DNA from: Lachnospiraceae bacterium 28-4
Lineage (GTDB): Bacteria; Bacillota; Clostridia; Lachnospirales; Lachnospiraceae
DNA: 64,000 bases
Direction of reading: 5' to 3'
Assembly (NCBI GenBank): GCA_000403275.2
Contig: KE159599.1
Coordinates: 645,391 to 709,390, forward strand
This document shows, piece after piece, positions 14,115 to 36,027 of this stretch (position 1 is the first letter of the stretch; every line of letters starts with the position of its first letter). Below the pieces are notes generated by a model, which was not told where the DNA came from, searched no databases, and saw only the letters and a list, made by a program, of their open reading frames with translations. The position numbers and the translations under genes are program-made.

Positions 14115-14470
14115 CACGGAAATCAATTTTGATTTTGATCAGTGGCGCAAGAGGGAAGGCAAAGGGGACAGGGGCAGCCGGGGCAGGGCTGGCGGGGGGC
14201 GGTTTTCTGCCGTTGCTCCCAATCAGTAATTTCATTTATGAAATGGTCGAAATGCTAGGGAAAAATCGCATGGATGCGATTTTAGGGAGCCCAGGACAGG
14301 ATGTCCGTGGCTCCCGGCCCGGCCGGTTCCGCGATCTTGCTCCATTTCATTAATGAAATCTGATTGGAAGCTCCGGCAGAAAACCGCCCCCGCCAGCCCT
14401 GTCCCGGCTGTTCCTGTCCCCTTTGCCTTCCCTCCTGCGCCACTGATCAAAATCAAAATTGATTTCCGTG
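14115..14470. repeat. Large palindromic element A (356 bp)
   Basis: Two inverted arms of about 130 bases with over 90% complementarity enclose a core of about 100 bases. Both arm ends carry CACGGAAA. Nearer the core comes GGTTTTCTGCC, then an ATTTCAT/ATGAAAT box on each side. The core holds two hairpins: 14285-14315 (outer stem GGGAGCC with GGCTCCC, inner stem GGACA with TGTCC) and 14262-14283 (centre ATCGCAT/ATGCGAT). The element starts 20 bases after the DUF5722 gene stop and ends before the rfbA promoter. Its core reads in the minus orientation relative to copies B and C. No protein gene is seen here; the open frames on both strands merely mirror the palindrome. Confidence 0.9.
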
Positions 14471-14489
14471 CTTCCATCCCCTCTCAAAA

Positions 14490-16337
14490 TTATTTTTCTT
14501 TTATCTCTTTTATCACCGTCTTCCAATCGCTGATCCCAATGATCTTTTTCGCAAAATCAGTATATTTCTCCTGCTCTTCCGTATCCATATATTTATAAAC
14601 ATTATATACATATTTCCGTGAGCCATCCATATAATTAATCCCCAAATCAAGCCCCTGCTCCATTTCCTCCGCCGCATCCGTTTGTCTGGAAAACAGCACG
14701 GACTCTATATGCGGATTGGCTTCTGCCGCCTTATAAGCGTACACGATGGCCGCCGCCTGCACATCCTCTCCGTCAGAAGATGTATACCCAAGCTCGCTAA
14801 TCGTTACGGGACGGACTTCCCCGTCTTCCATGAGGAATTCTTCCTGCTGCAGATAATCCGTCACCACATCAATATTCGCCATCGTAACCATAGGGGTATC
14901 CTCCGAATCCTTCACATACAGAGAATCTTTCCATATATAGGGCGAGGTCAGCGGAACATTATATGGGTGGATCGCCAATCCCCAGTCGATATTTCCCTCT
15001 TCTCTGATCTGTTTGTTGAACTCTTCCAATATATCCTTGGCATCATAGTGGATCAGGCTATTGGAATTGCTGTCCCATCTCTGATCCAGGGAAATAAATA
15101 TCCTGCTGGCGCCATTGATACTTTTAATCGAATTATAAAGTACGCGGAAAGCTCTGATATATTCCTTGACATATGCTCTGATGCTTGTATATTCCATATA
15201 GTTCCAGTCTTTTCTTGCATTGATTTCATTCCCGATAATCCAGTTTGCAACGATCCCCCTGCCATTTGCCCTTCCGGAATACCGCTCTGCCAAAAAAGAT
15301 CCTATCGCTGCCAGATATTCCACCCCTTCTTCATCCGCTCCGTTAAATGCATAGTAAGGAGCCGTCCCTATGCCCGAACGGGCCTGCGGGTGAATCAGCT
15401 GCGGATAGGCAGGAACCACATCATTCAGCAAAATCACCGTAATTTCAATTTCTTTTTCCGTAAGAGTCTTGAATATCAGGTCATATTCCGAAATCACTTC
15501 CCCGTTAAACGTATACCCCTTCCCATTATAAACATATTCCACAGGCGGGTATTCCTCGTTGTCAGACTCTCCCAATATCCTTGATACCGGGATATTATAT
15601 GCCGCATGTTTAATCCCGAGATCCTCCAGTTCCCCCGACAAAAGCTTATCCGGGTCGATCAGAAGTCCTTTCTTTGATTCCGCGTTCTTTCCGTTGGATT
15701 TGTATACGGATATTTCCTCCGGATTTGTCACATAATAAGGTTTGCTCACCGCCACAAACTTATCGTCTTTTTTCACCGCCACCACATACTTGTACAGCAG
15801 TCCGCTTATATTCCCCACGTGCCTTGAAAACTGAAATTCCACTTCGCTTCCTTTATATTTTTGTTCAATAGGGAACATATCCTCCGTAATCTGATCATTG
15901 TGTACCCGCAATGCAAACAAATAGTAATAAGAATCGTCGCTGACAGGAATCTCCTCAGCCACCGCCTTAAGCACGATGTTGCTCGTGGTATTATCGACCA
16001 GGCAGGACTCCACCGTGAGAATGCTTTCCGTACCCGTCTCTGTCAATTCCACAAAATCCGGGCGTTTTTCCACCATTTCAAACACATTGGCTCCGGCATC
16101 CACGGCCGCTTCCAATACCTCTTCGCTTCGGGCTTTTGCAGCCTCGGCTTCCCTTTCCGCCTCCGCGATCTGCTGCTTTTCCCTCTCTATCCGATTCGCC
16201 CAGGCCTCCCTCGTCTGCCTGTCCGCCGCTGCCTTATATGCGATCCTGCCAATAACCGCCAAAATACATATCCCTATTGCAACGGCTGCCGCATAACGCT
16301 TTTTCCCTTCTCCTTTTTTCCTTTTTCCAAATCTCAT
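14490..16337 (-). CDS. Membrane-anchored DUF5722 protein (glycosidase-like)
   Basis: About 615 residues. A basic N-terminus and one membrane segment (about 16-35) are followed by a coiled-coil stretch (REKQQIAEAEREAEAAKARSE), a beta-rich module, and a long C-terminal domain resembling DUF5722, which has a TIM-barrel glycoside-hydrolase look: WIIGNEINARKDWNYM (possible acid/base Glu), IHPYN and ISELGYTSSDG (possible nucleophile Glu). It probably acts on an extracellular glycan, but no activity is established from sequence. ATG at 16337 has a GAGGT site; longer frames lack one. Element A follows its stop by 20 bases. rfbB lies upstream on the same strand. Confidence 0.75.
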   Translation of the reverse strand: MRFGKRKKGEGKKRYAAAVAIGICILAVIGRIAYKAAADRQTREAWANRIEREKQQIAEAEREAEAAKARSEEVLEAAVDAGANVFEMVEKRPDFVELTETGTESILTVESCLVDNTTSNIVLKAVAEEIPVSDDSYYYLFALRVHNDQITEDMFPIEQKYKGSEVEFQFSRHVGNISGLLYKYVVAVKKDDKFVAVSKPYYVTNPEEISVYKSNGKNAESKKGLLIDPDKLLSGELEDLGIKHAAYNIPVSRILGESDNEEYPPVEYVYNGKGYTFNGEVISEYDLIFKTLTEKEIEITVILLNDVVPAYPQLIHPQARSGIGTAPYYAFNGADEEGVEYLAAIGSFLAERYSGRANGRGIVANWIIGNEINARKDWNYMEYTSIRAYVKEYIRAFRVLYNSIKSINGASRIFISLDQRWDSNSNSLIHYDAKDILEEFNKQIREEGNIDWGLAIHPYNVPLTSPYIWKDSLYVKDSEDTPMVTMANIDVVTDYLQQEEFLMEDGEVRPVTISELGYTSSDGEDVQAAAIVYAYKAAEANPHIESVLFSRQTDAAEEMEQGLDLGINYMDGSRKYVYNVYKYMDTEEQEKYTDFAKKIIGISDWKTVIKEIKEK

Positions 16338-16383
16338 CGGCCTTACCTCTTTTGTCCCTATCCTTGTCCCCTCTGAAACCGCA

Positions 16384-16417
16384 CTGCCGGGCAATCCCAT
16401 ACCGCCCGGCAGTTTTT
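16384..16417 (+). terminator. Hairpin with T-run between rfbB and the DUF5722 gene
   Basis: CTGCCGGGC (16384-16392) pairs perfectly with GCCCGGCAG (16404-16412), followed by TTTTT on the plus strand. On the minus strand, where the flanking genes are transcribed, no T-run follows, so there it may only pause transcription or protect RNA ends. Confidence 0.55.
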
Positions 16418-16523
16418 CATCGCTTTTTAGTTATTGATGCCGGTACCGAATCCGGCGGAGCGTTCCCCATATACATTTGCGTCTGCTGTGAGAGCCGGCG
16501 TTCCCATCGGTTGCAGATGCATC

Positions 16524-17600
16524 TTACTTGTACATTTCCTCATAATATTTCTGATAATCGCCGCTCGTCACATTTTTCATCCATTCCTCATGTTCAAAAA
16601 ACCACTGGATCGTAAGCCTGATTCCCTCTTTAAACATCGTTTCCGGCTCCCAGCCAATCTCTTCCTTAATCTTGTCCGGAGCTATCGCATATCTCCTGTC
16701 ATGACCCTTACGATCCTCCACATAGGTAATCAAATCTTTGCTGACCAGCTCTTTTCTCGGATCGCCTTCCGGCAGCATTTCCTGCAATGTCTCGATAATG
16801 ATATGGACGATCTCGATATTCTGCTTCTCGTTATGCCCTCCTACATTATAAGTCTCAAACAGCCGGCCCTTTTCCTGCACCATATCGATCGCCTTGGCAT
16901 GATCTTCCACATACAGCCAGTCCCTTACATTTTTACCGTCACCATATACCGGCAGTTTTTTACCTTGCAGCGCATTATTGATAATCAACGGAATCAACTT
17001 TTCCGGGAACTGGTAAGGGCCGTAATTATTCGAGCAGTTCGTAATGTTCGCCGGAAAATGATACGTATCCATATAAGCCTTCACCAGCATATCCGATCCC
17101 GCTTTGCTTGCCGAATAAGGGCTATGAGGCGCATAAGGAGTTGTTTCATAAAAATATTCTCCCTCTTCCTCCAGAGAACCGTATACTTCATCCGTAGACA
17201 CGTGGAGGAATTTTTTCCCTTCCTTAAATGTCCCGTCCGGCAGTTCCCAGGCCGCTTTCGCACAGTTCAACATAACCGCTGTTCCGAGGACGTTAGTCTG
17301 AATAAAAACTTCCGGGTTGCGGATGCTTCTGTCCACATGGCTTTCCGCCGCAAAATGAACCACCCTGTCAATATCGTTCTCAGCAAATATTTTCGCCACA
17401 GCATCCTTATCGCAGATATCCGCTTTCACGAACGTATAATTCTTCCTGCCTTCCACGCCCTTCAGATTTTCCAGATTCCCCGCATAAGTAAGGGCGTCCA
17501 CATTAATAATGCGAATCTCGTCGCCATACTTCTTAAACATATAATGAATATAATTAGAGCCTATAAAACCGGCTCCGCCTGTCACCAGATAAGTTCTCAT
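16524..17600 (-). CDS. rfbB: dTDP-glucose 4,6-dehydratase
   Basis: A 358-residue extended short-chain dehydrogenase. It has the NAD-binding TGGAGFIGSNY, FAAESHVDRSI, STDEVYGSL and the catalytic YSASKAGSD (YxxxK), then NNYGPYQFPEK. It makes dTDP-4-keto-6-deoxyglucose from dTDP-glucose, linking rfbA and rfbC. ATG at 17600 has GGAGG at 8-base spacing; a consensus-like promoter sits 36 bases upstream. Confidence 0.97.
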   Translation of the reverse strand: MRTYLVTGGAGFIGSNYIHYMFKKYGDEIRIINVDALTYAGNLENLKGVEGRKNYTFVKADICDKDAVAKIFAENDIDRVVHFAAESHVDRSIRNPEVFIQTNVLGTAVMLNCAKAAWELPDGTFKEGKKFLHVSTDEVYGSLEEEGEYFYETTPYAPHSPYSASKAGSDMLVKAYMDTYHFPANITNCSNNYGPYQFPEKLIPLIINNALQGKKLPVYGDGKNVRDWLYVEDHAKAIDMVQEKGRLFETYNVGGHNEKQNIEIVHIIIETLQEMLPEGDPRKELVSKDLITYVEDRKGHDRRYAIAPDKIKEEIGWEPETMFKEGIRLTIQWFFEHEEWMKNVTSGDYQKYYEEMYK

Positions 17601-17635
17601 GCTTTCTTCCTCCATACTTTCCATCTGTTCTTCCC

Positions 17636-17664
17636 ATCATACCTTCTAATCCCCCCGCCGTCAA
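17636..17664 (-). promoter_or_regulatory. Promoter of rfbB
   Basis: -35 TTGACG (17659-17664) and -10 TATGAT (17636-17641) with a 17-base spacer on the minus strand. This leaves a leader of about 30 bases before the rfbB start. Confidence 0.8.
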
Positions 17665-17738
17665 TATCTGAAATAAAGCCCGCAAAAGAAATAAAATCAA
17701 CCTGCTTATACATTTTGTCGATGAATTACTATCATTAA

Positions 17739-17771
17739 GTTATTGACTTTTTTCGTCATAACTGACACAAT
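17739..17771 (+). promoter_or_regulatory. Possible promoter with overlapping operator
   Basis: TTGACT (17743-17748) with a weak -10 CACAAT 17 bases on could serve the small zinc-ribbon gene. The -35 lies inside an inverted repeat GTTATTGAC/GTCATAAC (17739-17762, one bulge), a plausible repressor site. No regulator can be named. Confidence 0.4.
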
Positions 17772-17842
17772 CTAATAGTACCAATTAAATATACACTGTA
17801 TTTCATTACAATGATTACAAATTTGAAAAGGGGAATAGAATC

Positions 17843-18091
17843 ATGATGTACATGCACTACTGCAAGCCCTGCCACCGTGTTCATATGCTGAACGGCCACA
17901 AAATGACATGCCCCAAATGCGGCGGTTCCATTACCGAACTCCGTATTCCGTATATGGAATACGTCAGTATGGATATGGACGAGCGCAACGCCTTTAAAAC
18001 GAGGTGTGCTGACGAAACACAGTTAAAAGAACTCAGCACTACTTACAGGATGTACAAATACAGCAAGTGGTACAAAGAGCTGCATGGTTGA
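17843..18091 (+). CDS. Small zinc-ribbon protein, function unknown
   Basis: 82 residues. The N-terminus has CKPC at about 7-10 and CPKCGG at about 24-29, forming a Cys4 zinc ribbon like a rubredoxin knuckle. The rest is helical and basic with many Tyr residues. AGGGG lies 9 bases before the ATG. I do not recognise a specific family. The next gene begins 135 bases on, and a CAGATA/TATCTG palindrome (18191-18205) sits between them. Confidence 0.75.
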   Translation: MMYMHYCKPCHRVHMLNGHKMTCPKCGGSITELRIPYMEYVSMDMDERNAFKTRCADETQLKELSTTYRMYKYSKWYKELHG

Positions 18092-18226
18092 TCCTCCAGA
18101 AGAATTCGCGGAAACAAAATATCCTAAAGTGGATTTTTTCAGTAAATCATAGTACAATAACAGATACAGCGAAAAATATCATCGTACTTGCAGATATTTT
18201 ATCTGTTATAAATGTGGAGGATTTAC

Positions 18227-19213
18227 ATGAAAAAATCAAGCAACCGAAAGCATAGAAAAAAACAGTTCCGTCTTAACTGGCATCTTCTGTTATTTGCTCT
18301 GATACTTATCATTGCAGCTACCGCAATTATCAAGCTCGTTATATGGAATGCCGGCACAAAATCCGATTTTGATCCCGCTCATATTGCAGAGGGGGGCGAC
18401 GTGGAACCCCTCGATACTATTATTCCTCTCAGCGATTCCAAGCTGGAAGGACATGAAGATGACGGCGTCATGACGGTTTTGTGCCTGGGAAACAACCCCC
18501 TTACGGATGAAACCGGGGAAAGGGGATTTGTTTCGCTGCTCTCTTCTAAGACCAATGCCACCGTTTATAACGGGGGATTTCCGGATTCCACCATCGGAAC
18601 AAAGTATTCCGTATACAATGAAGGCTATCCAAGAGACAACTTCAATCTTCCTCATGTTGCCCAGAGCATTTGCAGCGGAGATTTTTCCCGTATGGAAGCG
18701 GCCTCTTCCGCAGAATCAAATCCAATCTATGCAGAAACGGTAAACACTTTAAAGTCCATCGATTACAGCAAAATAGACATGATCGCCATTATCTACGACG
18801 GCACGGATTATCTGGCGGGCATTCCCTCCGACAACCCCAATGATCCTTACGAAATCAGCGCTTACACCGGAGGGCTGCGCACTGCGATCGAAGCGATCCA
18901 GAATTCTTACCCGTATATAAGGATCGTAGTCATGTCCCACACTTTTGCCCAGTCCATCGATGCAAACGGCAATTTCCAAAACGGAGGCAGTACAGATCTT
19001 GGAAACGGAGCCCTTCCCCATTATCTGCTCAAAGAAATCGACGTATCCATTTCCTGCGGCGTATCCATTATCGACAACTTTTACGGAACGATCAATGAAG
19101 ACAACTACCGCGATTATATGTCCGATAACATCCATTTAAACGATTCCGGAAGGCAGCTCATGGCAGACCGTCTCGCCGAATTCATAAACACCGGCCGCAC
19201 CTCCGCCCACTAA
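18227..19213 (+). CDS. Membrane-anchored SGNH-like protein lacking the usual Ser
   Basis: About 328 residues. A basic N-terminus and one hydrophobic segment (about 19-38) anchor it outside. The fold follows SGNH/GDSL esterases: VLCLGNNPLTD at the nucleophile block, IIYDGTDYLAGIP at block III, and DNIHLNDSG with the block V His. Compared with its neighbour at 40.2-41.3 kb, GDS is replaced by GNN, and the block III Asn is replaced. The nucleophile therefore appears lost, and the protein may bind rather than hydrolyse acyl-glycans. GGAGG precedes the ATG at 6 bases. Likely works with wall-polymer acylation. Confidence 0.7.
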   Translation: MKKSSNRKHRKKQFRLNWHLLLFALILIIAATAIIKLVIWNAGTKSDFDPAHIAEGGDVEPLDTIIPLSDSKLEGHEDDGVMTVLCLGNNPLTDETGERGFVSLLSSKTNATVYNGGFPDSTIGTKYSVYNEGYPRDNFNLPHVAQSICSGDFSRMEAASSAESNPIYAETVNTLKSIDYSKIDMIAIIYDGTDYLAGIPSDNPNDPYEISAYTGGLRTAIEAIQNSYPYIRIVVMSHTFAQSIDANGNFQNGGSTDLGNGALPHYLLKEIDVSISCGVSIIDNFYGTINEDNYRDYMSDNIHLNDSGRQLMADRLAEFINTGRTSAH

Positions 19214-19234
19214 CCACCAATAAAAAATCCCATC

Positions 19235-19373
19235 TCCCGCGGCATAAACCATCAATAGGAAAAATGCCGCGGGGCGGAATTTTAAATCAATGCGGAGAAT
19301 GCCCGCTTTCTGGGCATTCTCTGGCGTGAAAAGTACTTCGAATTGCTTTATCAATTCGAAGTACTTTTCACGC
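19235..19373. terminator. Three consecutive hairpins between convergent genes
   Basis: Three stem-loops fill the gap between convergent genes. First, a 10-bp stem CCCGCGGCAT/ATGCCGCGGG (about 19235-19272). Second, AGAATGCCC/GGGCATTCT (19296-19320). Third, a perfect 22-bp stem (19324-19345 with 19352-19373, 6-base loop). The third ends just before the stop of the minus-strand gene. They probably terminate transcription from both sides, though T-runs are poor. Confidence 0.7.
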
Positions 19374-19375
19374 TA

Positions 19376-20428
19376 CTAAGGTTCGCCAGAAAACAACTCC
19401 TCAAAATCATATTCTTCCACGATCCGTCTCATTTCTTCCAGCTCTTCTTGCAGGTTTTCTTCCGTTACCCCGCATTCCCCGTCCGCAAAGCATTCCGCCA
19501 TATAGCGATTGATATCCGGGTGGTAATGGCTGTAATCCGCATATCGGTCCAGATCGCATATGATCCATTCCTGGTTGGGAAAAAAGAACACCCTGACATT
19601 TTCATAAGAAAACAACCGCTCCGAAATATATTCATATTCCCTCAACACCGCTTCCAACTGTTTTTCCTGCAGCACGTCATTCCAATACAAAATGCTGTAG
19701 GGCGGATAAAACACATAAAATTCCGTATCCGGGTTCGCTTCAATATAAGGACATATATTCGCATCCATATTCGCCCTGATATTGTCGATAAATTTTTCCG
19801 GGTCGGCCTCTTCCTGCGCCGGTTCAGCCGGCACATAGTTATGCATTACCCATTGTTTATTATAATATTCTTCCGTCCACCAGCTCGCGTACATCGTCGC
19901 CAGATCTGTTTTATCCGGATCAGCCAGGGGCCTCATAATATATTGGAGTACTACATCTTTATTCAACAAATATGGAATATCGTTCCACACATAATCGTCA
20001 TACAGATATTCCGGTATCGGGTATTTCGTCTCTTCCACTCCGCCGCTGTAAGTGATCACATCGATCCCCAAAAAAACCGCATCCACTTTGCGCCCGTCCT
20101 GAAACACGATATCCATAATATTCGCCTGGTCTTTTGGAAACGCTCCGCTGTAGCTTAGCTTCAAAGTTTTTAATCCCATCAGTTCCCCAAACCAGTTCGT
20201 ATTAAAATTCACGGTCATGGAAGAACCTAAAATCACGCTGTCATACTCCATATGCCTTGCCATGCCCGGATTCTGGTTTACCTGATGATCCACCACATAG
20301 GGAAAATCCTCCAAAGGAGCATGATACTGAAAAAAAGGATCTATATACGCGGTCAGCAGCATTACCAATACCGCCGCCGCCAGAAAACTGCCGGCAAATA
20401 TAACCAGCCATCTCTTATATTGTTTCAT
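19376..20428 (-). CDS. Extracytoplasmic SGNH-like acyl-transfer partner
   Basis: 350 residues with one N-terminal membrane segment (about 7-27). It has SVILGSSMTVNF, where GSS matches the DltD/PatB-type nucleophile block, and a late HYHPDINRY segment that may supply the His. Proteins of this kind sit beside MBOAT acyltransferases and complete transfer of an acyl group to a glycan outside the cell. The MBOAT gene lies 14 bases upstream on the same strand, supporting a pair. The C-terminus is highly acidic. Substrate is unknown. Confidence 0.72.
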   Translation of the reverse strand: MKQYKRWLVIFAGSFLAAAVLVMLLTAYIDPFFQYHAPLEDFPYVVDHQVNQNPGMARHMEYDSVILGSSMTVNFNTNWFGELMGLKTLKLSYSGAFPKDQANIMDIVFQDGRKVDAVFLGIDVITYSGGVEETKYPIPEYLYDDYVWNDIPYLLNKDVVLQYIMRPLADPDKTDLATMYASWWTEEYYNKQWVMHNYVPAEPAQEEADPEKFIDNIRANMDANICPYIEANPDTEFYVFYPPYSILYWNDVLQEKQLEAVLREYEYISERLFSYENVRVFFFPNQEWIICDLDRYADYSHYHPDINRYMAECFADGECGVTEENLQEELEEMRRIVEEYDFEELFSGEP

Positions 20429-20442
20429 CTTCTATCATTCCT

Positions 20443-21906
20443 CTAAAAATTAAAGTACAGAAAAGTGCTGACCCCGGAAAAAGCAAGCACACACCAGAGC
20501 ATCGCCCCCGCAAACAATACCGCCGTCCATGGTTTCGGTTTTATTTTATCCGCGACTCCGGCCGCATTTTTTCCAAAAAATACAAGCAGCAAAGAAAATA
20601 CCGTGATCGCTCCCATCAGGATATAATGTCCGTATTCCCATCCATCCAACCGCAAAACCTTTAAAATATACCAGAATTCGTCCAGGTTAAAATATCCCGC
20701 CAAATTCCTGTTCACCCTGGCATAATCCCCCGAAAACAACAGGGAAATCAACCGGTTTCCCTGCGCTGCATTCTCCGCCCTGAAATATACCCAGGCAAAC
20801 GCCGTATAGCAGAAAGTAAGGGGAACGGAAATAACCCGGGGAACCTTTCTTCCGTGAAAAGCCCCTCTCCGATTCATCCACATCCTCGTCAGGACATATA
20901 ATACGCCATGGAGCATTCCCCAAAGGATAAAATTCCATCCGGCCCCGTGCCATATTCCGCTGACCAGAAACACAATCAGCAGATTGCCGTACATCCGCGC
21001 CCTGCCTTTCCGGTTTCCCCCAAGAGGAATATAAATATATTTTGTAAAAAAACGGTTCAAAGTAATATGCCACCGCTTCCAGAACTCTACAATATTCCCC
21101 GCCTGATATGGGGAATTGAAATTCACCGGCAGCTCTATGCCAAACATCCGGCTCACTCCAAGAGCCATATCGCAGTAACCGCTGAAATCAAAATAAAGCT
21201 GCAAAGCATAAAAAACCACGATCAAAAGAGCGTCCCAGCCATGCATGATCTCCAGGTTGGAATAACCATAGTCCACCGCTCCTCCAAAAGTATCCGCCAA
21301 TATCACCTTTTTCATCATGCCCATCACAAACTGGCAGACGCCCCTCATAAACTTTTCCGCATCAAACCCCTTTTCTCCTGCTCCCGCAAGCTCCGGCTCC
21401 CATTCGGCATATATGACAAGCGGTCCCTCCACCAGTTTCGGAAAGTATACGATCGAAAGCATATAATCAAGAAATCCTTTTGTTTCAATCTCCCCCTTAT
21501 AACAATCCGCCAGATAGGAAATCTGCTGAAAAGTAAAAAAACTGATACCCACGGGCAGCGCCACGTGAAGCAGCGGCAATTCCATGCCGCTGATATAGTT
21601 CCAGTTCCCGATAAAAAAATCCATATATTTAAAATAAACAAGCGCAGCAAGATTTACCGCAACTCCAGCCGCCAGCAGCCCGCCGGCCCGTTTTTTCCCC
21701 TTCATCCCCAACGCAATCCCATAGTTCAAAAATACGCTGAGCAACAGAAGGAGCAAGTATTCCAGCCGGAAACTGCCGTAGAACCAAAGCGACATGGCTG
21801 CCAGCCAGAGCTTTGCCGCCCTGCTTCCGATCCTGCCCGCCAGATAATACCCGCCAAGGCTCACAGGCAAAAATACGAATACAAAAATATACGAATGAAA
21901 TAACAT
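20443..21906 (-). CDS. MBOAT O-acyltransferase (AlgI/DltB type)
   Basis: 487 residues with about ten or more membrane segments. Family signatures: VYFPKLVEGPLVIY, YFDFSGYCDMALG, FWKRWHITLNRFFTKYIYIPLGG and the catalytic His region SGIWHGAGWNFILWG. Such enzymes pass acyl groups across the membrane to extracellular polysaccharide or teichoic acid. It is followed 14 bases later by its probable SGNH partner and preceded by two membrane-protein genes. A modest AGGTG ribosome site is present. Confidence 0.92.
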   Translation of the reverse strand: MLFHSYIFVFVFLPVSLGGYYLAGRIGSRAAKLWLAAMSLWFYGSFRLEYLLLLLLSVFLNYGIALGMKGKKRAGGLLAAGVAVNLAALVYFKYMDFFIGNWNYISGMELPLLHVALPVGISFFTFQQISYLADCYKGEIETKGFLDYMLSIVYFPKLVEGPLVIYAEWEPELAGAGEKGFDAEKFMRGVCQFVMGMMKKVILADTFGGAVDYGYSNLEIMHGWDALLIVVFYALQLYFDFSGYCDMALGVSRMFGIELPVNFNSPYQAGNIVEFWKRWHITLNRFFTKYIYIPLGGNRKGRARMYGNLLIVFLVSGIWHGAGWNFILWGMLHGVLYVLTRMWMNRRGAFHGRKVPRVISVPLTFCYTAFAWVYFRAENAAQGNRLISLLFSGDYARVNRNLAGYFNLDEFWYILKVLRLDGWEYGHYILMGAITVFSLLLVFFGKNAAGVADKIKPKPWTAVLFAGAMLWCVLAFSGVSTFLYFNF

Positions 21907-21914
21907 AACAACAC

Positions 21915-22733: not shown

Positions 22734-22770
22734 ATCTTATCTCCTCCGCTGAACGAATACATATGCTCAT

Positions 22771-23877: not shown

Positions 23878-23904
23878 TTCTTTTCTCCTTACACAGTTTT
23901 CTAT

Positions 23905-26808: not shown

Positions 26809-26814
26809 GACGAT

Positions 26815-27157: not shown

Positions 27158-27276
27158 TGATTTGGCGTGTGACACTTAATCCAATCTTCGCCCAGCATGG
27201 CGCTTATAAAAATTGATTTCTGCAGCCCAAAGTATTCCCACTTGTAATCCCAACAACAATATGTTATACTGGCAAT

Positions 27277-27379: not shown

Positions 27380-27467
27380 GCTTTTCCCTACTGTCTAAGT
27401 AGGCAAGCAACGCCATCAGGAAATTACCAGCTAAAAATAATAAGCTTAAAATACGGTATGTATCCAT
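27372..27467 (-). CDS. Type I toxin, Hol_Tox family, copy 2
   Basis: Encodes the same 31-residue peptide as copy 1; the observed base changes are synonymous (for example TTG to TTA in a Leu codon). The GGAGGT ribosome site and structured leader are kept. Preservation of the protein while flanks drift indicates both copies have been under selection or duplicated recently. Confidence 0.82.
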   Translation of the reverse strand: MDTYRILSLLFLAGNFLMALLAYLDSREKRK

Positions 27468-27589
27468 CTGCGCCACCTCCCTCTTTCCTTATTTCCCCGA
27501 AGGGATAATGCCGACTGGCATAACGGCGATTGCCGCTTTCGAAAGCCGGGAGGCTGCCACCTTGCAACGCGATTGTTTCCTTGCTCACT

Positions 27590-27618
27590 ATTCTACTACA
27601 TTCTTATTCCCCTAACAA
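27590..27618 (-). promoter_or_regulatory. Toxin promoter, copy 2
   Basis: -35 TTGTTA (27613-27618), 17-base spacer, -10 TAGAAT (27590-27595), as in copy 1. Confidence 0.6.
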
Positions 27619-27659
27619 TGATTTGGTGTGTGACACTTAGTCCAATCTTCGCCCAAAGT

Positions 27660-27930
27660 CACGGAAAAGGGAAGCCGATAGAGATGGAAAGGGACGGGGG
27701 GCTGGTTTTCTGCTGAAGCTTCCAATCAGATTTCACTAATGAAATGGATAATGCGATAAAACCGAACGAGCCGGAAGCAACGGCATCCATGCCTATGCTT
27801 CCTGAACCCGCCCTCCCTGGCGGGTTCGCTCTGGTTATCGACCATTTCATAAGTGAAATTACTGATTGTACGCAACAGCAGAAAACCAGCCCCCGTCCCT
27901 TTCCATCTCTACCGGCTTCCCTTTTCCGTG
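27660..27930. repeat. Large palindromic element B (271 bp)
   Basis: Inverted arms of about 90 bases start and end with CACGGAAA, as in element A, but the arm sequence between is different. Near the core are GGTTTTCTGCTG and the box ATTTCACTAATGAAATGG, mirrored on the other side. The core (plus orientation) has hairpin 1 at 27773-27802 (outer GGAAGCA with TGCTTCC, inner GGCAT with ATGCC) and hairpin 2 at 27804-27827 (GAACCCGCC with GGCGGGTTC). It lies between the second toxin-antitoxin copy and a 19-base toxin remnant. Confidence 0.9.
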
Positions 27931-27941
27931 ACGTTTACAAA

Positions 27942-27960
27942 GTATGTATCCATCTGCGCC
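27942..27960 (-). pseudogene. Toxin start-region remnant
   Basis: These 19 bases match exactly the ribosome-site-to-start region of the Hol_Tox toxin genes (bases around the ATG and first codons). Nothing else of the module is left, and element B abuts it. It suggests a third module copy that was mostly lost. Confidence 0.5.
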
Positions 27961-27969
27961 TCAGCCGTT

Positions 27970-29397: not shown

Positions 29398-29415
29398 CTA
29401 TATCCCTGCCCTTCC

Positions 29416-31191
29416 TCAATATGCCATATCGCTTCCGCAGCAATATACATAAACCGCATAAGGAGCCTCTTCTGCCTCATAGGCTTTTATCAGATGCAGC
29501 CCGGCTTCATCGGCGTTGCCCAGTTCAAATCGTGAAAATATATATTTTCCTCCCAGATCCGCAAACGCCCCGGCATCTATATAAATATCTTTGTCCTCCA
29601 CCGTAAAAGACTTAAACTGACTTACCACCGACAGATCCGTTCCCGAATAAAGATATGCCCTGGCACCCCAATCATCATAATAGGCCCGGCTGGCCTCCAC
29701 CCGCTCCAGCGCCGGAGCAATGATCCTGCGAAAATCCTCCTTATAACTTTGCGGATAAAAACCGAGGTAGCCGTCCAGCGTGGCGATTCCGTTATATTCT
29801 AACACGGCCGGATGAAAGCCGTAAGCCGCCGACCATTCTCCCTCATAACCGATATCCTCCTTCACCTTCTCAAACAGATCGCAGGAATAAAATTCCCGGA
29901 AATTCATTTCGTCAATCTCTTTCCCTTTTATGATTTCCAACGCTTTATTCTTGCAGGTAAAAAACAGGTCGTTATACCTGGAAGGCGTCAGCAGAATCAC
30001 GGCCGCCGCCGCCAGCGCCAGCCCATTTGCCGCCCAGCGGCTCCAGCGCCGGATCGCTTCCCGCCCCTCCGTTCCAAAAGAAAACGTATACATCCTCTGC
30101 AAAATCATAAAATATGCCCCATACCAGAGAAAAGGACTAAAAAACACGGTACGGTTGAACTGAAAGCCTTTCAGGGGAGGAACAAGCATTTCCACCATCC
30201 GCCGGAAGGCCCCCCAATTATAAATACCATATACCACGCTGTTAAACACCAGAAGCAGCATCAACAGATTATAGACATCATGGAAAATCGCTTTGTATTT
30301 CCTCTCCGCCACATATTTCCCATTCCGCCAGAAAAAATACCCTGCACATATCCATAAAACCAGCTTATCATGAACGCTTTCCGCATGAAACATGCCATGC
30401 AGCCATACATCCGCACTCTGGGCCATTATCTCTCCCGCCGTCAGATCCGCCTCTGCCATAGTAGCGCGAATCGTTTCCACGCCTCCGAAAAGCATAACGT
30501 AAAATAAACGATATTCAAAAAACACATATCCAAGCCCCAGTACCACCAAAGCGGCCATCAAAGATACCGGTGCCTTTCTGTCCCTGATCCACAGCCAGAT
30601 AATCCCGGCCAGAAGATACGCAAGAATAAAAAAACCATGATAAGAAAAATAAGAGAAAAAGGGATAGCAGAATAACAAGACATACAGCTTTACGGAGGGT
30701 TTCCTGTAAATCCGCAGCAGAAGATACAGCGCCAGCGGAATTGACGCGAACGGAATACCAAAAGCCGGAAATAAGTTCAAAATTCCATAACAAAACCCCA
30801 TCATGGCCGCCATCGGCCTATATTTTACAAAATCCTCCCCATACCATTCCTTTGCCAGCATCCAAACGGATGCCAATGATATCGCCACTTTCAGCAGATA
30901 TCCTGTAATATAGGCCGCAAAAGGGGGAAGCAAAAAATAGAGCAGCGTATAAAGAGACAGCTCCGAAGGCAGATTATCCCTTGTGACCCCGCCCAAAAAA
31001 GGTACATCAACGCCATGGGAAAAAAAGCTGTCCGTATTTTTCAACATACCGAACTGTGCCATAAACAGATCCAGATTATCATGCACCGCAATATAGCTGC
31101 TTTCTCCAAAAACAATATATACCGCGGAAACGGACAATAAAAATGCCCCTATGAAAATAACGTACCAATTACCGATGATTCTTTTCTTCAT
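29416..31191 (-). CDS. Large polytopic membrane protein, DUF6044-like
   Basis: 591 residues with about ten membrane segments, then a soluble C-terminal region of about 170 residues (from roughly 420). The first external loop has VHDNLDLFMAQFGML, an acidic pattern like GT-C enzymes. The start overlaps the preceding gene by 23 bases, and the ribosome site is poor, so translational coupling is likely. Its role is probably glycan modification or transfer outside the membrane, judged from fold and operon only. Confidence 0.68.
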   Translation of the reverse strand: MKKRIIGNWYVIFIGAFLLSVSAVYIVFGESSYIAVHDNLDLFMAQFGMLKNTDSFFSHGVDVPFLGGVTRDNLPSELSLYTLLYFLLPPFAAYITGYLLKVAISLASVWMLAKEWYGEDFVKYRPMAAMMGFCYGILNLFPAFGIPFASIPLALYLLLRIYRKPSVKLYVLLFCYPFFSYFSYHGFFILAYLLAGIIWLWIRDRKAPVSLMAALVVLGLGYVFFEYRLFYVMLFGGVETIRATMAEADLTAGEIMAQSADVWLHGMFHAESVHDKLVLWICAGYFFWRNGKYVAERKYKAIFHDVYNLLMLLLVFNSVVYGIYNWGAFRRMVEMLVPPLKGFQFNRTVFFSPFLWYGAYFMILQRMYTFSFGTEGREAIRRWSRWAANGLALAAAAVILLTPSRYNDLFFTCKNKALEIIKGKEIDEMNFREFYSCDLFEKVKEDIGYEGEWSAAYGFHPAVLEYNGIATLDGYLGFYPQSYKEDFRRIIAPALERVEASRAYYDDWGARAYLYSGTDLSVVSQFKSFTVEDKDIYIDAGAFADLGGKYIFSRFELGNADEAGLHLIKAYEAEEAPYAVYVYCCGSDMAY

Positions 31192-32608
31192 TCCCTAACC
31201 ATTTTCCTTTGTTCCCATTCCGCCACAAAGCCCGGCCTTTTATTTCATCATAAATCATCATCGACAGAGCTGTGTAAAACAATCCCATACTATAAATCAT
31301 ATAACGCGGCTGACAGAAAATCATAGCGCCCACGACAAAGCAGTTTACCGCCACGCTGCCAAAGACGATCTCAGCCATCGTCCCGCTTTCATCCCTTTTC
31401 GCCCAGCCTTTATTCCTCCATATGCGGCGCGCATAAAGCAGCAAATACAGAATATAAGCCGCTGCTGCGCAAAGGTTCAGATAACGGTTTACCCTTGCGA
31501 TAGAATTAATAAAGCCTTTCCATGTATTCGATACATACACGCGGATCAGATTTCCCTTTTTCTGGCCAAACAACGTCTTCACCATAGCATTGCAATATTC
31601 GTCATATTTCAAGACCGCATCAATGCCCGTATATCCATCATGCTCCCTGACGTATCCCTGCACTACCGGATTAATAATACCATAGCCGATCGCATCGTAA
31701 CTGTCCGCATAATGGGAAGAAAGATCCACCCATCCCTCGGGCGCATAAGCGATCTTAAGCCCCTGTCTGTCCGCTTCCGCAAAAATCTCCTCATAGAGCC
31801 CCCGAAGCGTCTCATCCTCAAACAGGCCGCTATCTTCCGCCTCCGCAGTATAGACCAGCGTGCAAAGCATCCCCATGGAATTGCCCGAATGCTCAATCCA
31901 TGCCCCCCTGACACAATAATTATAAAGTCTGTCCGTAAACTTACAGGCAAAGAATATCCCGGCAGTCAGAACAAGCAGAAACAGCAGCTTTTTCACCCTT
32001 TTTTCTTTTATCAGATAATAAAGGAGAAACACTGCCGCCATCAGGCAGATCGTAATCAGCATCTGCTTCCGCAGATTCACCAGCAGCAACGCAAAAAATA
32101 CCGTCCCTGCCAGATTTCTTTTTTTCTCCTCCATCATATACCGGTACAACTGCACGATAAAAAGAACATACAGCGACAGCCCAAGCCCTTCCGTCATAAT
32201 ACTGCAAATATAGGAAGAACGTCTGGCCGCTACAAATCGACATAAAATAGTAACGCCAAACTGAAAGAGTACCGAAAGAAGCGCCAGTATGTTGCTGTTC
32301 CCTTTATCCCTTTTCACCGTCACAGCCAGTTTCCATGTCGCATAAGCCGCAAGAAGGCTCTGGACAAACACTACCGGCACCAGATAACTTTCCTCGCCAA
32401 ACATTCGCCGGAATATCCAAAGAAACGTAGGATACAACGGTTCTCTCGTCAAATCCATCGTCGCGTAACTAAGGGAGTCCTTACACCAGACCGGCCCGTC
32501 ATAAAAGGCAAAAAAGAGATAAAATCCCAGCGATGCCGCCAATAGGCCGAGTTCCCATTTATCCCACTTTTTCCCCATCTTCTTCCCGATATCAGTCCAC
32601 ATCCCCAC
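31169..32608 (-). CDS. Polytopic membrane protein, possibly GT-C-like
   Basis: 479 residues with about ten membrane segments. An early loop with WCKDSLSYATMDLTREPLYP has acidic residues as in GT-C proteins, and a soluble stretch of about 120 residues lies between later helices. I choose GTG at 32608 because GGAGG is 7 bases upstream; ATG two codons later is the alternative. It overlaps the end of the GT2 gene by 17 bases. No exact family is recognised. Confidence 0.68.
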   Translation of the reverse strand: MGMWTDIGKKMGKKWDKWELGLLAASLGFYLFFAFYDGPVWCKDSLSYATMDLTREPLYPTFLWIFRRMFGEESYLVPVVFVQSLLAAYATWKLAVTVKRDKGNSNILALLSVLFQFGVTILCRFVAARRSSYICSIMTEGLGLSLYVLFIVQLYRYMMEEKKRNLAGTVFFALLLVNLRKQMLITICLMAAVFLLYYLIKEKRVKKLLFLLVLTAGIFFACKFTDRLYNYCVRGAWIEHSGNSMGMLCTLVYTAEAEDSGLFEDETLRGLYEEIFAEADRQGLKIAYAPEGWVDLSSHYADSYDAIGYGIINPVVQGYVREHDGYTGIDAVLKYDEYCNAMVKTLFGQKKGNLIRVYVSNTWKGFINSIARVNRYLNLCAAAAYILYLLLYARRIWRNKGWAKRDESGTMAEIVFGSVAVNCFVVGAMIFCQPRYMIYSMGLFYTALSMMIYDEIKGRALWRNGNKGKWLGNEEKNHR

Positions 32609-33533
32609 GCTCTTTCCTCCCCTGGATCATATTCAGCCGGAATTCAAAATCTCTTCTGTTCTTCAGCGCCATATTGGACAAGATAAGTCCTGAAAAAAAG
32701 GACTGTATGGCTGCCAGCATGACAAAACCGCATACGAACAGCGTCGGAAACTTATCCACCATTCCTGTTTTGATAAAATCCACCAGGACAGGAATAAAAA
32801 AGACAATCGATACTGCCGCCAGGAGTACGGCCAGCAACGTGAAAAAGCCCAGCGGCTTATAATCCTTATACAGCTTTCCTATCGTTCCAAGCACTTTCAA
32901 CCCATCCGCATAAGTGTTTAATTTGGATTCGCTTCCCTCCGGCCGATCCCTGTAATCCACGACCACGTTCTCAATCTGCATATTATTGGATACCGCATGG
33001 ATCGTCATCTCTGTCTCGATCTCAAATCCTTTGGACAGCACCGGAAAAGTTTTTACAAAACCATAGCTGAAAGCCCTGTAGCCTGTCATAATATCTTTAA
33101 TATCACAGCCAAACAACCGGTTAATGCTTCCCCTCACCAGACTGTTTCCCATATTATGAAAAGGCCTTTTATTTTCAGTAAAATACGTGGACGACAGCCT
33201 GTCCCCCACCACCATATCCGCATTATGATTCAGCACCTTGTCCACCATCTCTGCGGCATACTCCATCGGGTAAGTGTCATCCCCGTCCACCATTACATAA
33301 CACTCCGCCTCCACCTCGCGGAACATGCGCCGAATCACATTTCCTTTCCCCTGCATATACTCATTCCGCACCAGCGCTCCCGCCTCTGCGGCCAACTCCG
33401 CCGTTCTGTCGCTGGAGTTATTATTATATACATAAATCACCGCCTCAGGCAAAGCAGCTCTTGCATCCTTCACTACTTTGGCAATCGTTTTTTCCTCGTT
33501 ATAACACGGTATCAGCACTGCTATCTTATCCAT
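32592..33533 (-). CDS. DPM1-like GT2 with two C-terminal membrane helices
   Basis: 313 residues. The GT2 domain begins IAVLIPCYNEEKTI, with VMVDGDDTYP as the metal-binding site and MTGYRAFSYG later. Two hydrophobic segments at about 235-260 and 270-290 anchor the C-terminus. Enzymes of this kind make polyprenyl-phosphate sugars used by membrane GT-C enzymes, and three membrane proteins with GT-C-like loops follow in the operon. Sugar is unknown. Element C lies about 140 bases upstream. Confidence 0.88.
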   Translation of the reverse strand: MDKIAVLIPCYNEEKTIAKVVKDARAALPEAVIYVYNNNSSDRTAELAAEAGALVRNEYMQGKGNVIRRMFREVEAECYVMVDGDDTYPMEYAAEMVDKVLNHNADMVVGDRLSSTYFTENKRPFHNMGNSLVRGSINRLFGCDIKDIMTGYRAFSYGFVKTFPVLSKGFEIETEMTIHAVSNNMQIENVVVDYRDRPEGSESKLNTYADGLKVLGTIGKLYKDYKPLGFFTLLAVLLAAVSIVFFIPVLVDFIKTGMVDKFPTLFVCGFVMLAAIQSFFSGLILSNMALKNRRDFEFRLNMIQGRKERGDVD

Positions 33534-33673
33534 TATTTACTCTCTATTCTTTCTTGATTTATTCTGCATATTCTGACTTTTCCTCTATAGTATATCCGTC
33601 ATAAGGTATATTTTAACAGAATCTTACGGTTTCGTCTATATATGGGATAGAAATCAGGTTGGAGAACGAGGAA

Positions 33674-33999
33674 AGATTTGGAAGAGTTTGGAAACGGAGG
33701 GGCGGTTTGGCAGCAGCAGGGGTGGCGCGGCAGCGGGGCGGGGTTTTCCAGGTGGATCTTTTCATCAGATTTCACTAATGAAATGGATGGAATTTTGTCA
33801 AACTGGCCGGGTCGGAAATGAAGGGCATCCATGCCCTGCATTTCCTATAATTGCCATCCATGGCAATTATTCCCTGGGGGTTCGACCATTTCATAAGTGA
33901 AATTGCTGATGAAAAGCAACACCTGGAAAACCCAGCCCCGCTGCCGCCCACCCCTGTCGCTGCCAAACCGCCCCTCCGTTTCCAAACTCTTCCAAATCT
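33674..33999. repeat. Large palindromic element C (326 bp)
   Basis: Arms of about 110 bases are over 90% complementary, rich in purines on one strand, with a GGTTTGGCAGCAGCAGGGG segment shared with element E. The core (plus orientation) has hairpin 1 at 33814-33845 (outer GGAAATG with CATTTCC, inner GGGCAT with ATGCCC) and hairpin 2 at 33847-33870 (ATAATTGCC with GGCAATTAT). The boxes ATTTCACTAATGAAATGG and its mirror flank the core. The gap 33534-34366 otherwise holds no gene. Confidence 0.9.
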
Positions 34000-34246
34000 C
34001 TAATTCTCCCACCCCAACTAATTTCATACCAAAAAGCAAAAACGGCAACTACATATTTGTTAAGTGGTGGTGGAATAATAGAAGCCCCATGTCCCATAGT
34101 GATGCGTCTCCCCTGGCGGACGGGTTCGGCCGGAGGGAAGGCGGGTTTTCCGGGTGTTACGCGAAATCAGCCATTTTACTTATGAAATGGTTCATAAGCC
34201 AAGGTAAAATTGCCATGGATGGTAATGTCATTAAGTTAGGCTTTGT

Positions 34247-34296
34247 AATACCGAAGTGATCACAGCGATTGCTTCGGTATTATTTTGCTTTTTTTG
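34247..34296 (+). terminator. Terminator inside the left end of the IS
   Basis: AATACCGAAG (34247-34256) pairs with CTTCGGTATT (34272-34281), followed by a T-rich run. It would stop read-through from flanking DNA into the transposase gene, a common IS safeguard. Confidence 0.75.
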
Positions 34297-34366
34297 AAAA
34301 AGGTATTGACAAATCATCAAAAATGTGTGGCGGAGCCCTTGATGAAAACATACCAAGGAGGACTCC

Positions 34367-35689
34367 ATGAAACATATCACACATATTAAGGCCAGCCTTA
34401 GGAAGGCCATCAGGCACATATCCGACCAGAAAGAACAATTCGTCTGGAACAGCAAAACCGATTTTACCCGCAGAAAAAAACTCGACTTCCCTACCATGCT
34501 GCGCTTCCTTCTCCAGATGGAAGGCAGCACCATCCGCAACGAACTCACCGATTATTTTCATGACAGCCCGGACTGCCCTTCCCCTTCTGCCTTCTACCAG
34601 CAGCGCTTAAAGATAAAGCCCGATGCGCTCTATATGCTTTTCCGTACTTTTACCGCCCAGTATAAAGGGACCCGCTGGAAGGGATACCGCCTGCTGGCTG
34701 TGGATGGGTCCACGATTTATACCCCCAGGAACGAAAAGGATGCTTCCTCTTATCTCTTTAACGGCGCCGGAAAGAAGGGATGGAACTGCGTACATATGAA
34801 TGCCCTTTATGACCTTATGGACGGCCTGTATGTGGACGCGGCCGTCCATCCCGGGAAGAAGCCGGGGGAGCAGGCGGCGCTGAAGCCTATGCTGGACCGG
34901 CTCAGCGACCCGGGGCATTCCATCATCATCGGGGACCGCGGCTATGAATCCTTCCAGATGGTTGCCGACCTCGAGGCCCGCGGCATCCCGTTTGTCATCC
35001 GGGTCAAAAAGCCTTCCAGCAACTGGGGGTTCCTTGCAAAGGCAGACTTCCCGGAGCAAAAGGAGTTTGACCTTCCATTCACCTGCAAAATAGCCCATGC
35101 CAATTCCTTCAAGGGAAACAAGAGCCGCGCCAGAATGCTGGGGGAGGGATACCGGCCTGGCAACCGCTGCTTTTCCTATGTTTCCAAGGACTCCCCCACT
35201 TACCACTTCCAGCCCATGAGGGTGGTCAGATGCGGCAACGACCTGCAGGAGGGGGAACCGGTATACCTCCTTACGAACCTGCCGGAAGGACGCTTTGGCT
35301 TATCGGAAATCAAAGAGCTGTACAAGCTGCGCTGGGGGATAGAGACTTCTTTCCGGGAATTAAAATATGCCCTTTCGCTGCTCCATTTCCATTCAAAAAA
35401 GATGGACCTTATGATGCAGGAGATCTTTGCAAGGCTTACCATGTACAACTTCAGCCACATGATTACCAGTCAGTTGAAGCCTGAAGTGAAACCGGGGAAA
35501 AAACACGCCCGGCAGATCAATCATACATATGCGGCAAAAATATGCAAGGAATACTTCCGCAATAAAATCGGCCCATCCCATTTGAAAGCACTTATACTGC
35601 GCCATACATTGCCCATCCGCCCTGACAGGCATTACGAACGTAAGGCCAACAAAAAGCAGCCAAGGACTTTCCACTACAGGATATCATAA
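34367..35689 (+). CDS. IS4-family transposase
   Basis: 440 residues. The DDE triad is visible: Asp in LLAVDGSTI (about 110), Asp in IIGDRGYES (about 188), and Glu in the signature YKLRWGIETSFRELK (about 325), which fits the IS4 rule Y-2-R-3-E-6-K. GGAGG precedes the ATG at 5 bases. No frameshift or stop is seen, so the enzyme should be functional. It cuts and pastes the element using its 23-bp ends. Confidence 0.95.
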   Translation: MKHITHIKASLRKAIRHISDQKEQFVWNSKTDFTRRKKLDFPTMLRFLLQMEGSTIRNELTDYFHDSPDCPSPSAFYQQRLKIKPDALYMLFRTFTAQYKGTRWKGYRLLAVDGSTIYTPRNEKDASSYLFNGAGKKGWNCVHMNALYDLMDGLYVDAAVHPGKKPGEQAALKPMLDRLSDPGHSIIIGDRGYESFQMVADLEARGIPFVIRVKKPSSNWGFLAKADFPEQKEFDLPFTCKIAHANSFKGNKSRARMLGEGYRPGNRCFSYVSKDSPTYHFQPMRVVRCGNDLQEGEPVYLLTNLPEGRFGLSEIKELYKLRWGIETSFRELKYALSLLHFHSKKMDLMMQEIFARLTMYNFSHMITSQLKPEVKPGKKHARQINHTYAAKICKEYFRNKIGPSHLKALILRHTLPIRPDRHYERKANKKQPRTFHYRIS

Positions 35690-36027
35690 TTCAGATAAAA
35701 TTTATAGATAAAATTCAGGCAGTGGAAACTGTCTTTTTGGCATGCAAAAAAGGGAGAAGAAAAATGCGAATTGTATGGTCTCAGTTATTCTCAAAGCCTA
35801 ACTTAATGACATTACCATGGATGGCAATTTTAGGAAATGCAGGGCACGGATGCCCTTCATTTCCGACCTGTTCGGTTTGACAAACCTCCATCCATTTCAT
35901 TAGTAAAATCTGATTTCCCGTTCCACCCGGAAAACCCGCCTTCCCTCCGGCCGAACCCGTCCGCCAGGGGAGACGCATCGCTATGGGACATGGGGCTTCC
36001 ATCCTTCCCCCACAACTACTCCCCCTT

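What the first reader, a model, noticed from the sequence alone, without database searches (positions are those of the whole stretch)
14115..36000. Family of large palindromic elements with a covarying two-hairpin core
Four intergenic elements (A 14115-14470, B 27660-27930, C 33674-33999, D 34081-36000 split by an IS) share one architecture. Long inverted arms (about 90-130 bp, over 90% self-complementary) have different sequences in each copy. They then converge on conserved boxes (GGTTTTC, CAG, ATTTCAT/ATGAAAT) and a core with two adjacent hairpins separated by one base. Hairpin 1 always has a 7-bp outer stem, a 2x2 internal loop and a 5-6 bp inner stem capped by TCC. Its stems change together: GGGAGCC/GGCTCCC, GGAAGCA/TGCTTCC and GGAAATG/CATTTCC for the outer stem; GGACA/TGTCC, GGCAT/ATGCC and GGGCAT/ATGCCC for the inner. 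Hairpin 2 also covaries (ATAATTGCC in C, AAAATTGCC in D, GAACCCGCC in B). Even the flanking boxes change in pairs (TTTCACT, TTTCATT, TTTTACT with matching partners). This is the signature of selection on structure. I know of no named family with this shape.
Basis: seen in the sequence. Interest (0 to 1): 0.9.

Follow-up and report, generated by a model that had tools for sequence, protein, structure and literature searches.

The report
Jumping palindromes with an RNA core
A gut bacterium carries dozens of scattered mirror-image DNA elements that appear to jump, keep rewriting both of their arms in step, and hold at their centre a known but unexplained two-hairpin RNA motif.

Summary
The centres of B and C are Rfam RF01731 (TwoAYGGAY) on the minus strand. 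A and D are the same family by architecture, although Rfam does not call A and scores the IS-split D below its cut-off. So "no named family" is wrong.

The published RNA motif is only the middle of a larger mobile palindrome. This genome holds at least 84 copies with an uninterrupted core (62 type II, 22 type I). Many share terminal repeats (CACGGAAATCAATTTT), and 9-bp target duplications are significant. Element B is absent from a related species.

Arms differ between copies yet stay self-complementary: in 53 of 55 copies the opposite arm is closer than any other copy's. One orthologue has an inverted core, and site A holds type II here but type I in the relative. Arm mismatches show no G-U excess over A-C (128 v 136). 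I infer DNA-level copying, such as template switching, keeps the symmetry and makes much of the "covariation".

The GGA loops resemble CsrA sites, and 38 of 39 TwoAYGGAY genomes encode CsrA, but this is confounded with flagella. Transcription and CsrA binding are untested.

The parts
14115..14470 (+). Element A, complete: terminal repeats 14115-14130 and 14455-14470, long palindromic arms, type II core 14229-14359 on +
   Evidence: Inverted arms; perfect CACGGAAATCAATTTT at both ends. It also matches model R1, but A was among the 41 training sequences. The related genome G258 has a type I element at this site
14262..14283 (+). A, hairpin 1 (AAAATCGC ATGGAT GCGATTTT)
   Evidence: Read from sequence; aligned with the family
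14285..14315 (+). A, hairpin 2 (GGGAGCC..GGACAGGATGTCC..GGCTCCC; loop region contains ACAGGATGT)
   Evidence: Read from sequence; aligned with the family
27655..27935 (-). Element B: palindromic arms and type II core (27730-27859, sense strand -)
   Evidence: Rfam RF01731 at 27716-27875, 87.9 bits; absent at this place in G258
27804..27827 (-). B, hairpin 1 (GAACCCGCC/GGCGGGTTC)
   Evidence: Read from sequence; cmscan alignment
27773..27802 (-). B, hairpin 2 (outer GGAAGCA/TGCTTCC)
   Evidence: Read from sequence; cmscan alignment
33674..33999 (-). Element C: palindromic arms and type II core (33769-33903, sense strand -)
   Evidence: Rfam RF01731 at 33755-33919, 90.0 bits; an element lies at the same place in G258
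34063..36017 (+). Element D: palindromic arms and type II core, sense strand +, split by an IS; head-to-head neighbour of C
   Evidence: Arms 108 nt, 92% complementary; Rfam 30.6 bits, below cut-off; an uninterrupted copy lies at this place in G258 (sequence printed); by the right part of D's core, C is its closest of 64 cores compared
34223..35814 (+). IS4-family insertion sequence (1592 bp, 10-bp duplication CCATGGATGG) inside the loop of D hairpin 1; transposase 34367-35689
   Evidence: Ends and duplication; DDE_Tnp_1; NCBIfam IS4 NF033592, 175 bits

Best explanation
These are copies of a non-autonomous, MITE-like mobile palindrome, roughly 340-460 bp when both ends are present. SHOWN: shared terminal repeats; significant 9-bp target-site duplications; at least 84 copies with an uninterrupted core; presence/absence at two sites between related genomes; a conserved two-hairpin centre that is Rfam TwoAYGGAY; arms that differ between copies but are nearly complementary within a copy. 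INFERRED: (a) a DDE-type transposase acting in trans moves them; (b) the arms are kept symmetrical by copying one arm from the other at the DNA level, most likely polymerase template switching, which is published as homogenising inverted-repeat arms and inverting their spacer, both of which are seen here; (c) whole interiors are also exchanged between copies; (d) much of the covariation that marks the core as RNA is a by-product of this process; (e) when the sense strand is transcribed, the GGA-loop hairpins bind CsrA, so the elements act as dispersed CsrA ligands or decoys. Step (e) is the weakest.
For: Family: 62 of 66 matches over the Rfam cut-off in the own genome; 62 type II matches at 120 bits or more with model R1, a count that includes its 41 training sequences; 53 matches in related genome G258. 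Ends: CGGAAATCAATTTT with at most 1 mismatch 84 times in the genome against 3 for the reversed pattern. Duplications: at length 9 the mean flank match is 4.51 against 2.24 in mismatched flanks, permutation P = 2e-4, 8 of 43 copies with at least 8 of 9; at no other length from 5 to 13 did more copies than expected by about one reach length-1 matches. Mobility: B absent from G258; a G258 element absent from the window near 17677-17704. Arms: 59 of 65 copies have arms of 56-154 nt; G-U 128 against A-C 136, 95 against 100 in 43 elements from 26 other genera. In 53 of 55 copies the opposite arm is closer than any other copy's same-side arm; copies T23 and T24 differ by 9 changes on both arms and none on one arm. 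Inverted core in orthologue T56; type I against type II at site A. Core: 98 doubly changed cells against 9 one-sided. CsrA: 38 of 39 TwoAYGGAY genomes have CsrA against 88 of 211 others over cut-off, P = 6e-12 (lists compared by eye; test).
Against: No autonomous partner with these ends was found (only IS256-type transposases checked). Flagellin is present in 39 of 39 TwoAYGGAY genomes, so the CsrA association is confounded with motility. Core orientation is random relative to codirectional neighbour genes (17 sense, 19 antisense), against cis-regulation by read-through. A simple scan found two GGA-loop hairpins in only 67 of 142 cores, one in 65 and none in 10 (it misses stems broken by internal loops). 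The mean flank match was also raised at length 10 (3.28 against 2.52, P = 4e-4) and weakly at 6 and 8 (P about 0.01). The G-U/A-C test has limited power: terminator-like control hairpins gave 26:14 in the own genome but 8:13 in G258. At two of four informative shared sites (T52, T31) the arms may not be homologous by descent, so interior replacement rather than stepwise copying may explain them. Some copies (T39, T07) show mostly one-arm changes. No shuffled control for arm length was run in the other genera.
Confidence: 0.75

Rival explanations
1. Dispersed small-RNA genes of the CsrB/RsmZ kind: the elements are kept because their RNA binds CsrA, and covariation, arms included, reflects selection on RNA structure.
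For: GGA motifs are conserved while stems change. They include ACAGGATGT (17 occurrences in 50 type II cores) and CAYGGATGT (18 occurrences in 19 type I cores), close to the CsrA consensus RUACARGGAUGU (PMC4347634, passages). CsrA binding was proposed for this family in PMC4333381 (passages). CsrA in 38 of 39 genomes.
Against: A single mismatch in a 100-bp stem can hardly be selected against (inference), yet the median arm identity is 0.92-0.96. G-U and A-C mismatches are equal in the arms and not G-U biased in the cores (16 against 25). Orientation to codirectional genes is random. Target duplications and presence/absence show transposition.
Confidence: 0.3
2. Symmetry is made only at birth: each transposition passes through a fold-back intermediate that copies one arm into the other, and the arms then decay independently.
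For: Several copies are perfectly paired outside the asymmetric inner box (T23, T24, T32, T35) while others have decayed (T07, T39).
Against: Elements at shared sites, presumably older than the species split (0.37 divergence at 4-fold sites), are still nearly symmetrical within each species (4-16% arm difference). In 4 of 44 copies the palindrome continues 5-15 bp past the terminal repeat into host DNA, against 0.16% of mismatched flank pairs.
Confidence: 0.25
3. Bidirectional transcription terminators, or REP/BIME-like repeats with an mRNA-end function.
For: Hairpins between genes; in codirectional neighbourhoods they tend to lie close to the upstream gene's end.
Against: Convergent gene pairs, where terminators would concentrate, hold only 4 of 61 copies against 21 in divergent pairs. 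No T-run was seen after the stems of the four window elements as read (no terminator scan was run). Terminal repeats with 9-bp duplications are not REP features (recalled).
Confidence: 0.07

Closest known systems
TwoAYGGAY RNA motif (Rfam RF01731; reported in PMC2864571, 2010)
   Same: The core is this family: B and C over the gathering score, 62 matches over it in the genome.
   Different: Rfam models 168 nt and types it Cis-reg; PMC2864571's table has it as probably RNA, not cis-regulatory (passage). Here it is the centre of a longer palindrome with terminal repeats and target duplications. The passages read in PMC2864571, PMC4333381, PMC11701678 and PMC11661157 do not mention this.
MITEs (miniature inverted-repeat transposable elements)
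   Same: Short, high copy, terminal inverted repeats, target duplications.
   Different: The inverted repeat covers nearly the whole arm, arm sequence differs between copies while staying symmetrical, and no partner transposase was found.
REP/BIME/REPIN repeats and the IS elements that target them
   Same: Dispersed palindromes; an IS with a preference for the hairpin loop, as IS elements are reported to insert into REPs (PMC1525189, abstract).
   Different: About 340-460 bp rather than 20-40 bp hairpins; 9-bp target duplications; a different core.
Template-switched inverted repeats (yeast genes, PMC8604942; RNA hairpins, PMC8794818)
   Same: Arm homogenisation and spacer inversion, and multibase compensatory changes (abstracts).
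   Different: Here it would affect a whole family of mobile elements, and the arms are far longer than RNA helices.
CsrB/RsmZ-type CsrA-binding sRNAs
   Same: GGA in hairpin loops (recalled for these sRNAs); hosts encode CsrA.
   Different: Dozens of dispersed copies, palindromic arms, transcription unknown.

Membership tests
Rfam TwoAYGGAY (RF01731) | Covariance-model score at or above 43 bits | tested here: met
   Met for B (87.9 bits) and C (90.0 bits). Not met for D (30.6 bits, IS-interrupted) and A (no match at E <= 5): these are assigned by architecture and by model R1, whose training set included A, B and C
Rfam TwoAYGGAY (RF01731) | Two adjacent hairpins with GGA-containing loops | tested here: met
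   Both hairpins seen in A, B and C. Each of 50 type II and 19 type I cores holds at least two GGA, as do 43 of 43 from other genera; most were found with the Rfam model, a bias. An automatic scan confirmed two such hairpins in 67 of 142 cores only
MITE | Terminal inverted repeats shared between copies | tested here: met
   84 hits of CGGAAATCAATTTT with at most 1 mismatch, against 3 for the reversed control
MITE | Target-site duplication of fixed length | tested here: met
   9 bp, permutation P = 2e-4, 8 of 43 copies with at least 8 of 9 matches
MITE | Polymorphic insertion sites | tested here: met
   B absent from G258; a G258 element absent from the window
MITE | An autonomous element with the same ends | tested here: inconclusive
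   None of the four fetched IS256-type matches (two intact, two fragments; five matches in all) had these ends; other transposase families were not scanned
CsrA-binding sRNA | CsrA encoded in the host | tested here: met
   Own genome has CsrA; 38 of 39 TwoAYGGAY genomes, confounded with flagellin, 39 of 39
CsrA-binding sRNA | Transcribed, binds CsrA | not testable with these tools
   No RNA-seq or binding data on hand
REP/REPIN | Short tagged hairpin moved by a RAYT without target duplication (recalled) | tested here: not met
   Elements of roughly 340-460 bp with a 9-bp duplication; RAYT and the REP tag were not searched

The most novel reading that the evidence does not exclude
A self-symmetrising mobile element that carries a CsrA decoy. 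Its arms and stems are continually rewritten from one another by template switching, so it manufactures RNA-like covariation without RNA selection, while its two GGA loops, the part under real constraint, tie its spread to CsrA-bearing, flagellated hosts and make dozens of dispersed CsrA ligands per genome.
Probability: 0.3. Interest if true: 0.87.

Novelty: new variant of a known kind. Interest (0 to 1): 0.66.

Why it matters
TwoAYGGAY has been listed as a "probable" RNA of unknown function since 2010. Placing it at the centre of a transposing palindrome explains its high copy number here and offers a new kind of explanation for its covariation. It is a natural test case for the proposal that template switching, not only selection, makes paired substitutions, and it warns that a covariation test alone can mistake a DNA palindrome for a functional RNA. 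It also makes the CsrA-ligand proposal directly testable.

Tried and rejected
Covariation as proof of RNA: an RNAalifold-based count (type II G-U 34, A-C 16; type I 29 and 8) suggested a G-U excess in the core, but a neutral stem extension over 142 cores did not (16 G-U, 25 A-C), so I dropped that argument. Controls: tRNA acceptor stems were mis-registered, only 8 tRNAs, and are not used; terminator-like hairpins were not discriminating. IS256-type partner: no shared ends. Plasmid search with A: no match. Shared site T22 gave no usable arms in G258 and is left out of the four-site totals. Rows dropped by hand before the target-duplication test: T63, T65, T66, T10, T11, T27, T40, T44, T54, T59, T43, as truncated or with doubtful ends; eight further full-length copies, A among them, were added. 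Ten of 65 copies were left out for short or missing arms, four of 65 out. CsrA as the specific correlate: flagellin fits equally well. A promoter inside the left arm was considered only by eye; no scan was run. Literature on a mobile or palindromic TwoAYGGAY: the listings showed nothing of the kind by title or opening of abstract; seven papers hold the word TwoAYGGAY, five were listed, and I read passages of four (not PMC7657543).
Full report
WHAT IS THERE. The four elements of the finding are real. Rfam identifies the centres of B and C, on the minus strand, as TwoAYGGAY, RF01731, at 87.9 and 90.0 bits against a gathering score of 43. D scores 30.6 bits because an IS splits it; A is not called at E <= 5, but has the same boxes, hairpins and arms and aligns with 40 other cores. 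On the sense strand the hairpin loops read GGA.

COPY NUMBER. The window lies in a 4.28-Mb genome. Rfam RF01731 gives 66 matches there, 62 over the cut-off, in two subtypes: 22 at 107-121 bits (type I) and 40 at 59-96 bits (type II, to which the window's elements belong). A type II model built from 41 own copies finds 62 matches at 120 bits or more, those 41 included, and several IS-interrupted ones at 50-68 bits; only 150 of 2500 candidates were scored. Types I and II together make at least 84 copies with an uninterrupted core; arms are not complete in all of them.

ENDS AND MOBILITY. Many copies of both types end in CACGGAAATCAATTTT or close to it. In the genome, CGGAAATCAATTTT with at most one mismatch occurs 84 times against 3 for the reversed pattern. 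In 43 copies with both ends placed, flanks match as direct repeats best at length 9: mean 4.51 of 9 against 2.24 in mismatched flanks, permutation P = 2e-4, 8 copies with at least 8 of 9 where none is expected. The mean was also raised at length 10 (P = 4e-4) and weakly at 6 and 8 (P about 0.01), without strong individual matches. Two duplications are perfect (T04 and L071). G258, the closest of the 15 other genomes of the genus by match score, lacks B and carries an element where this window has none, near 17677-17704 (match coordinates; the alignment printed misplaced the left flank). Elements lie at the places of C and D in G258, D without the IS.

ARMS. In 59 of 65 own copies the arms are 56-154 nt; the other six are truncated, IS-split or short-armed. 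Elements from 26 other genera have the same build with different arms: in 42 of 43 the left arm extends at least 25 nt beyond the Rfam match, and one ends at unread bases (no shuffled control). Outer arm identity within a copy has a median of 0.92 (type I) or 0.96 (type II), against 0.68 to the best other copy; shuffled arms give 0.54. In 53 of 55 copies the opposite arm is closer than the same-side arm of any other copy. So symmetry is renewed after copies diverge. Copies T23 and T24 differ at 9 columns, all changed on both arms. Across 13 close pairs there were 152 concerted and 112 one-arm columns; 68 of the 112 come from the four pairs with the decayed copies T39 and T07.

SHARED SITES. 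At four informative shared sites, 130 columns differ in concert, 28 on one arm only, 8 are shared left-right differences and 13 are other; a fifth site, T22, was uninformative. Same-side arms differ by 31-50% between species, within-copy arms by 4-16%. For scale, 4-fold degenerate sites of six window genes differ at 365 of 991. Caveat: for T52 and T31 the element at the shared site is not among the four best arm matches in G258, for T11 it is second, for T56 first, so interiors may have been replaced. Replacement does occur: at site A this genome has type II and G258 type I between matching flanks. At T56 the core is inverted relative to flanks of 89-94% identity. In 4 of 44 copies the palindrome runs 5-15 bp beyond the terminal repeat into flanking DNA; insertion into an existing hairpin could also give this.

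DNA OR RNA. Arm mismatches on the sense strand are G-U 128 and A-C 136 in the own genome and 95 and 100 elsewhere. Neutral counting in 142 cores gives 16 and 25. The core covaries strongly, with 98 doubly changed cells and only 9 one-sided. That pattern, with arm homogenisation and spacer inversion, is what DNA template switching is reported to produce (PMC8604942 and PMC8794818, abstracts). My controls for the G-U test were weak, so this rests mainly on the arm comparisons.

CsrA. The loops resemble the CsrA consensus RUACARGGAUGU (PMC4347634, passages), and CsrA binding has been proposed for this family (PMC4333381, passages). Each of 69 own cores holds at least two GGA, but an automatic scan confirmed two GGA-loop hairpins in only 67 of 142 cores. 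In 250 genomes of the family, TwoAYGGAY matched in 39, 37 over cut-off, with only ten candidates scored per genome, and CsrA in 128, 126 over cut-off; comparing the lists by eye, 38 of the 39 have CsrA, the exception being G168. Flagellin is in all 39 and in 129 of 250 overall, so CsrA cannot be separated from motility. Core orientation is random in codirectional neighbourhoods (17 sense, 19 antisense), while 21 copies lie between divergent and 4 between convergent genes (61 copies; a simple ORF picker that drops ORFs overlapping an element, so it does not itself prove that elements are intergenic). This argues against a simple cis-regulatory role.

PAIRS AND THE IS. Of 16 neighbouring matches less than 1 kb apart among 261 listed hits, 14 are head to head, 2 same-strand and none tail to tail; the family list was limited to printed rows, and some pairs may be orthologous. 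In 4 of 6 own pairs the mates are mutual or near-mutual best matches. Of the eight long copies of the IS4-family element that were fetched, six sit in the hairpin 1 loop of a TwoAYGGAY core, two of these seen from one side only; shorter fragments were not examined.

VERDICT. A known RNA motif turns out to be the core of a mobile palindrome whose arms evolve in concert. Mobility and concerted arms are well supported, template switching is the likeliest mechanism, and the CsrA role is plausible but untested.

Noticed in passing
34223-35814; L092, L093, L094, L095, L098: The IS4-family element in D is inserted at the same place, the hairpin 1 loop of a TwoAYGGAY core, in 6 of the 8 long copies fetched (L093 and L098 seen from one side); the other two (L096, L097) sit at GGA-containing sites elsewhere.
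   Followed up: partly
33674-36017 (C and D); own-genome and other pairs: Elements under 1 kb apart are almost always head to head (14 of 16 listed, none tail to tail), suggesting a polar local duplication or a functional reason for this arrangement.
   Followed up: partly
L064:3999-4381: An element with the same terminal repeats and long arms but an A-rich centre that does not look like the TwoAYGGAY core; its palindrome continues 15 bp into flanking DNA.
   Followed up: no
13992-14095: A different short repeat upstream of A has 14 listed matches at other places in G258.
   Followed up: no
L085 near 3967-4016: A minimal pair of the terminal repeats about 50 bp long with no core, perhaps a deletion remnant.
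   Followed up: no
type I and type II cores; L167-L206: A T-T mismatch and an asymmetric box in the inner arms recur although the rest of the arms is nearly symmetrical, so some asymmetry may be protected from arm copying. The own cores were picked with patterns that fix the T-T site; a loose pattern matched 31 of 43 cores from other genera.
   Followed up: partly
L171, L197, L181, L204, L198: In three other genera the arms contain GGTGTCAAAA towards their ends, so the terminal repeats seem to differ between lineages.
   Followed up: no
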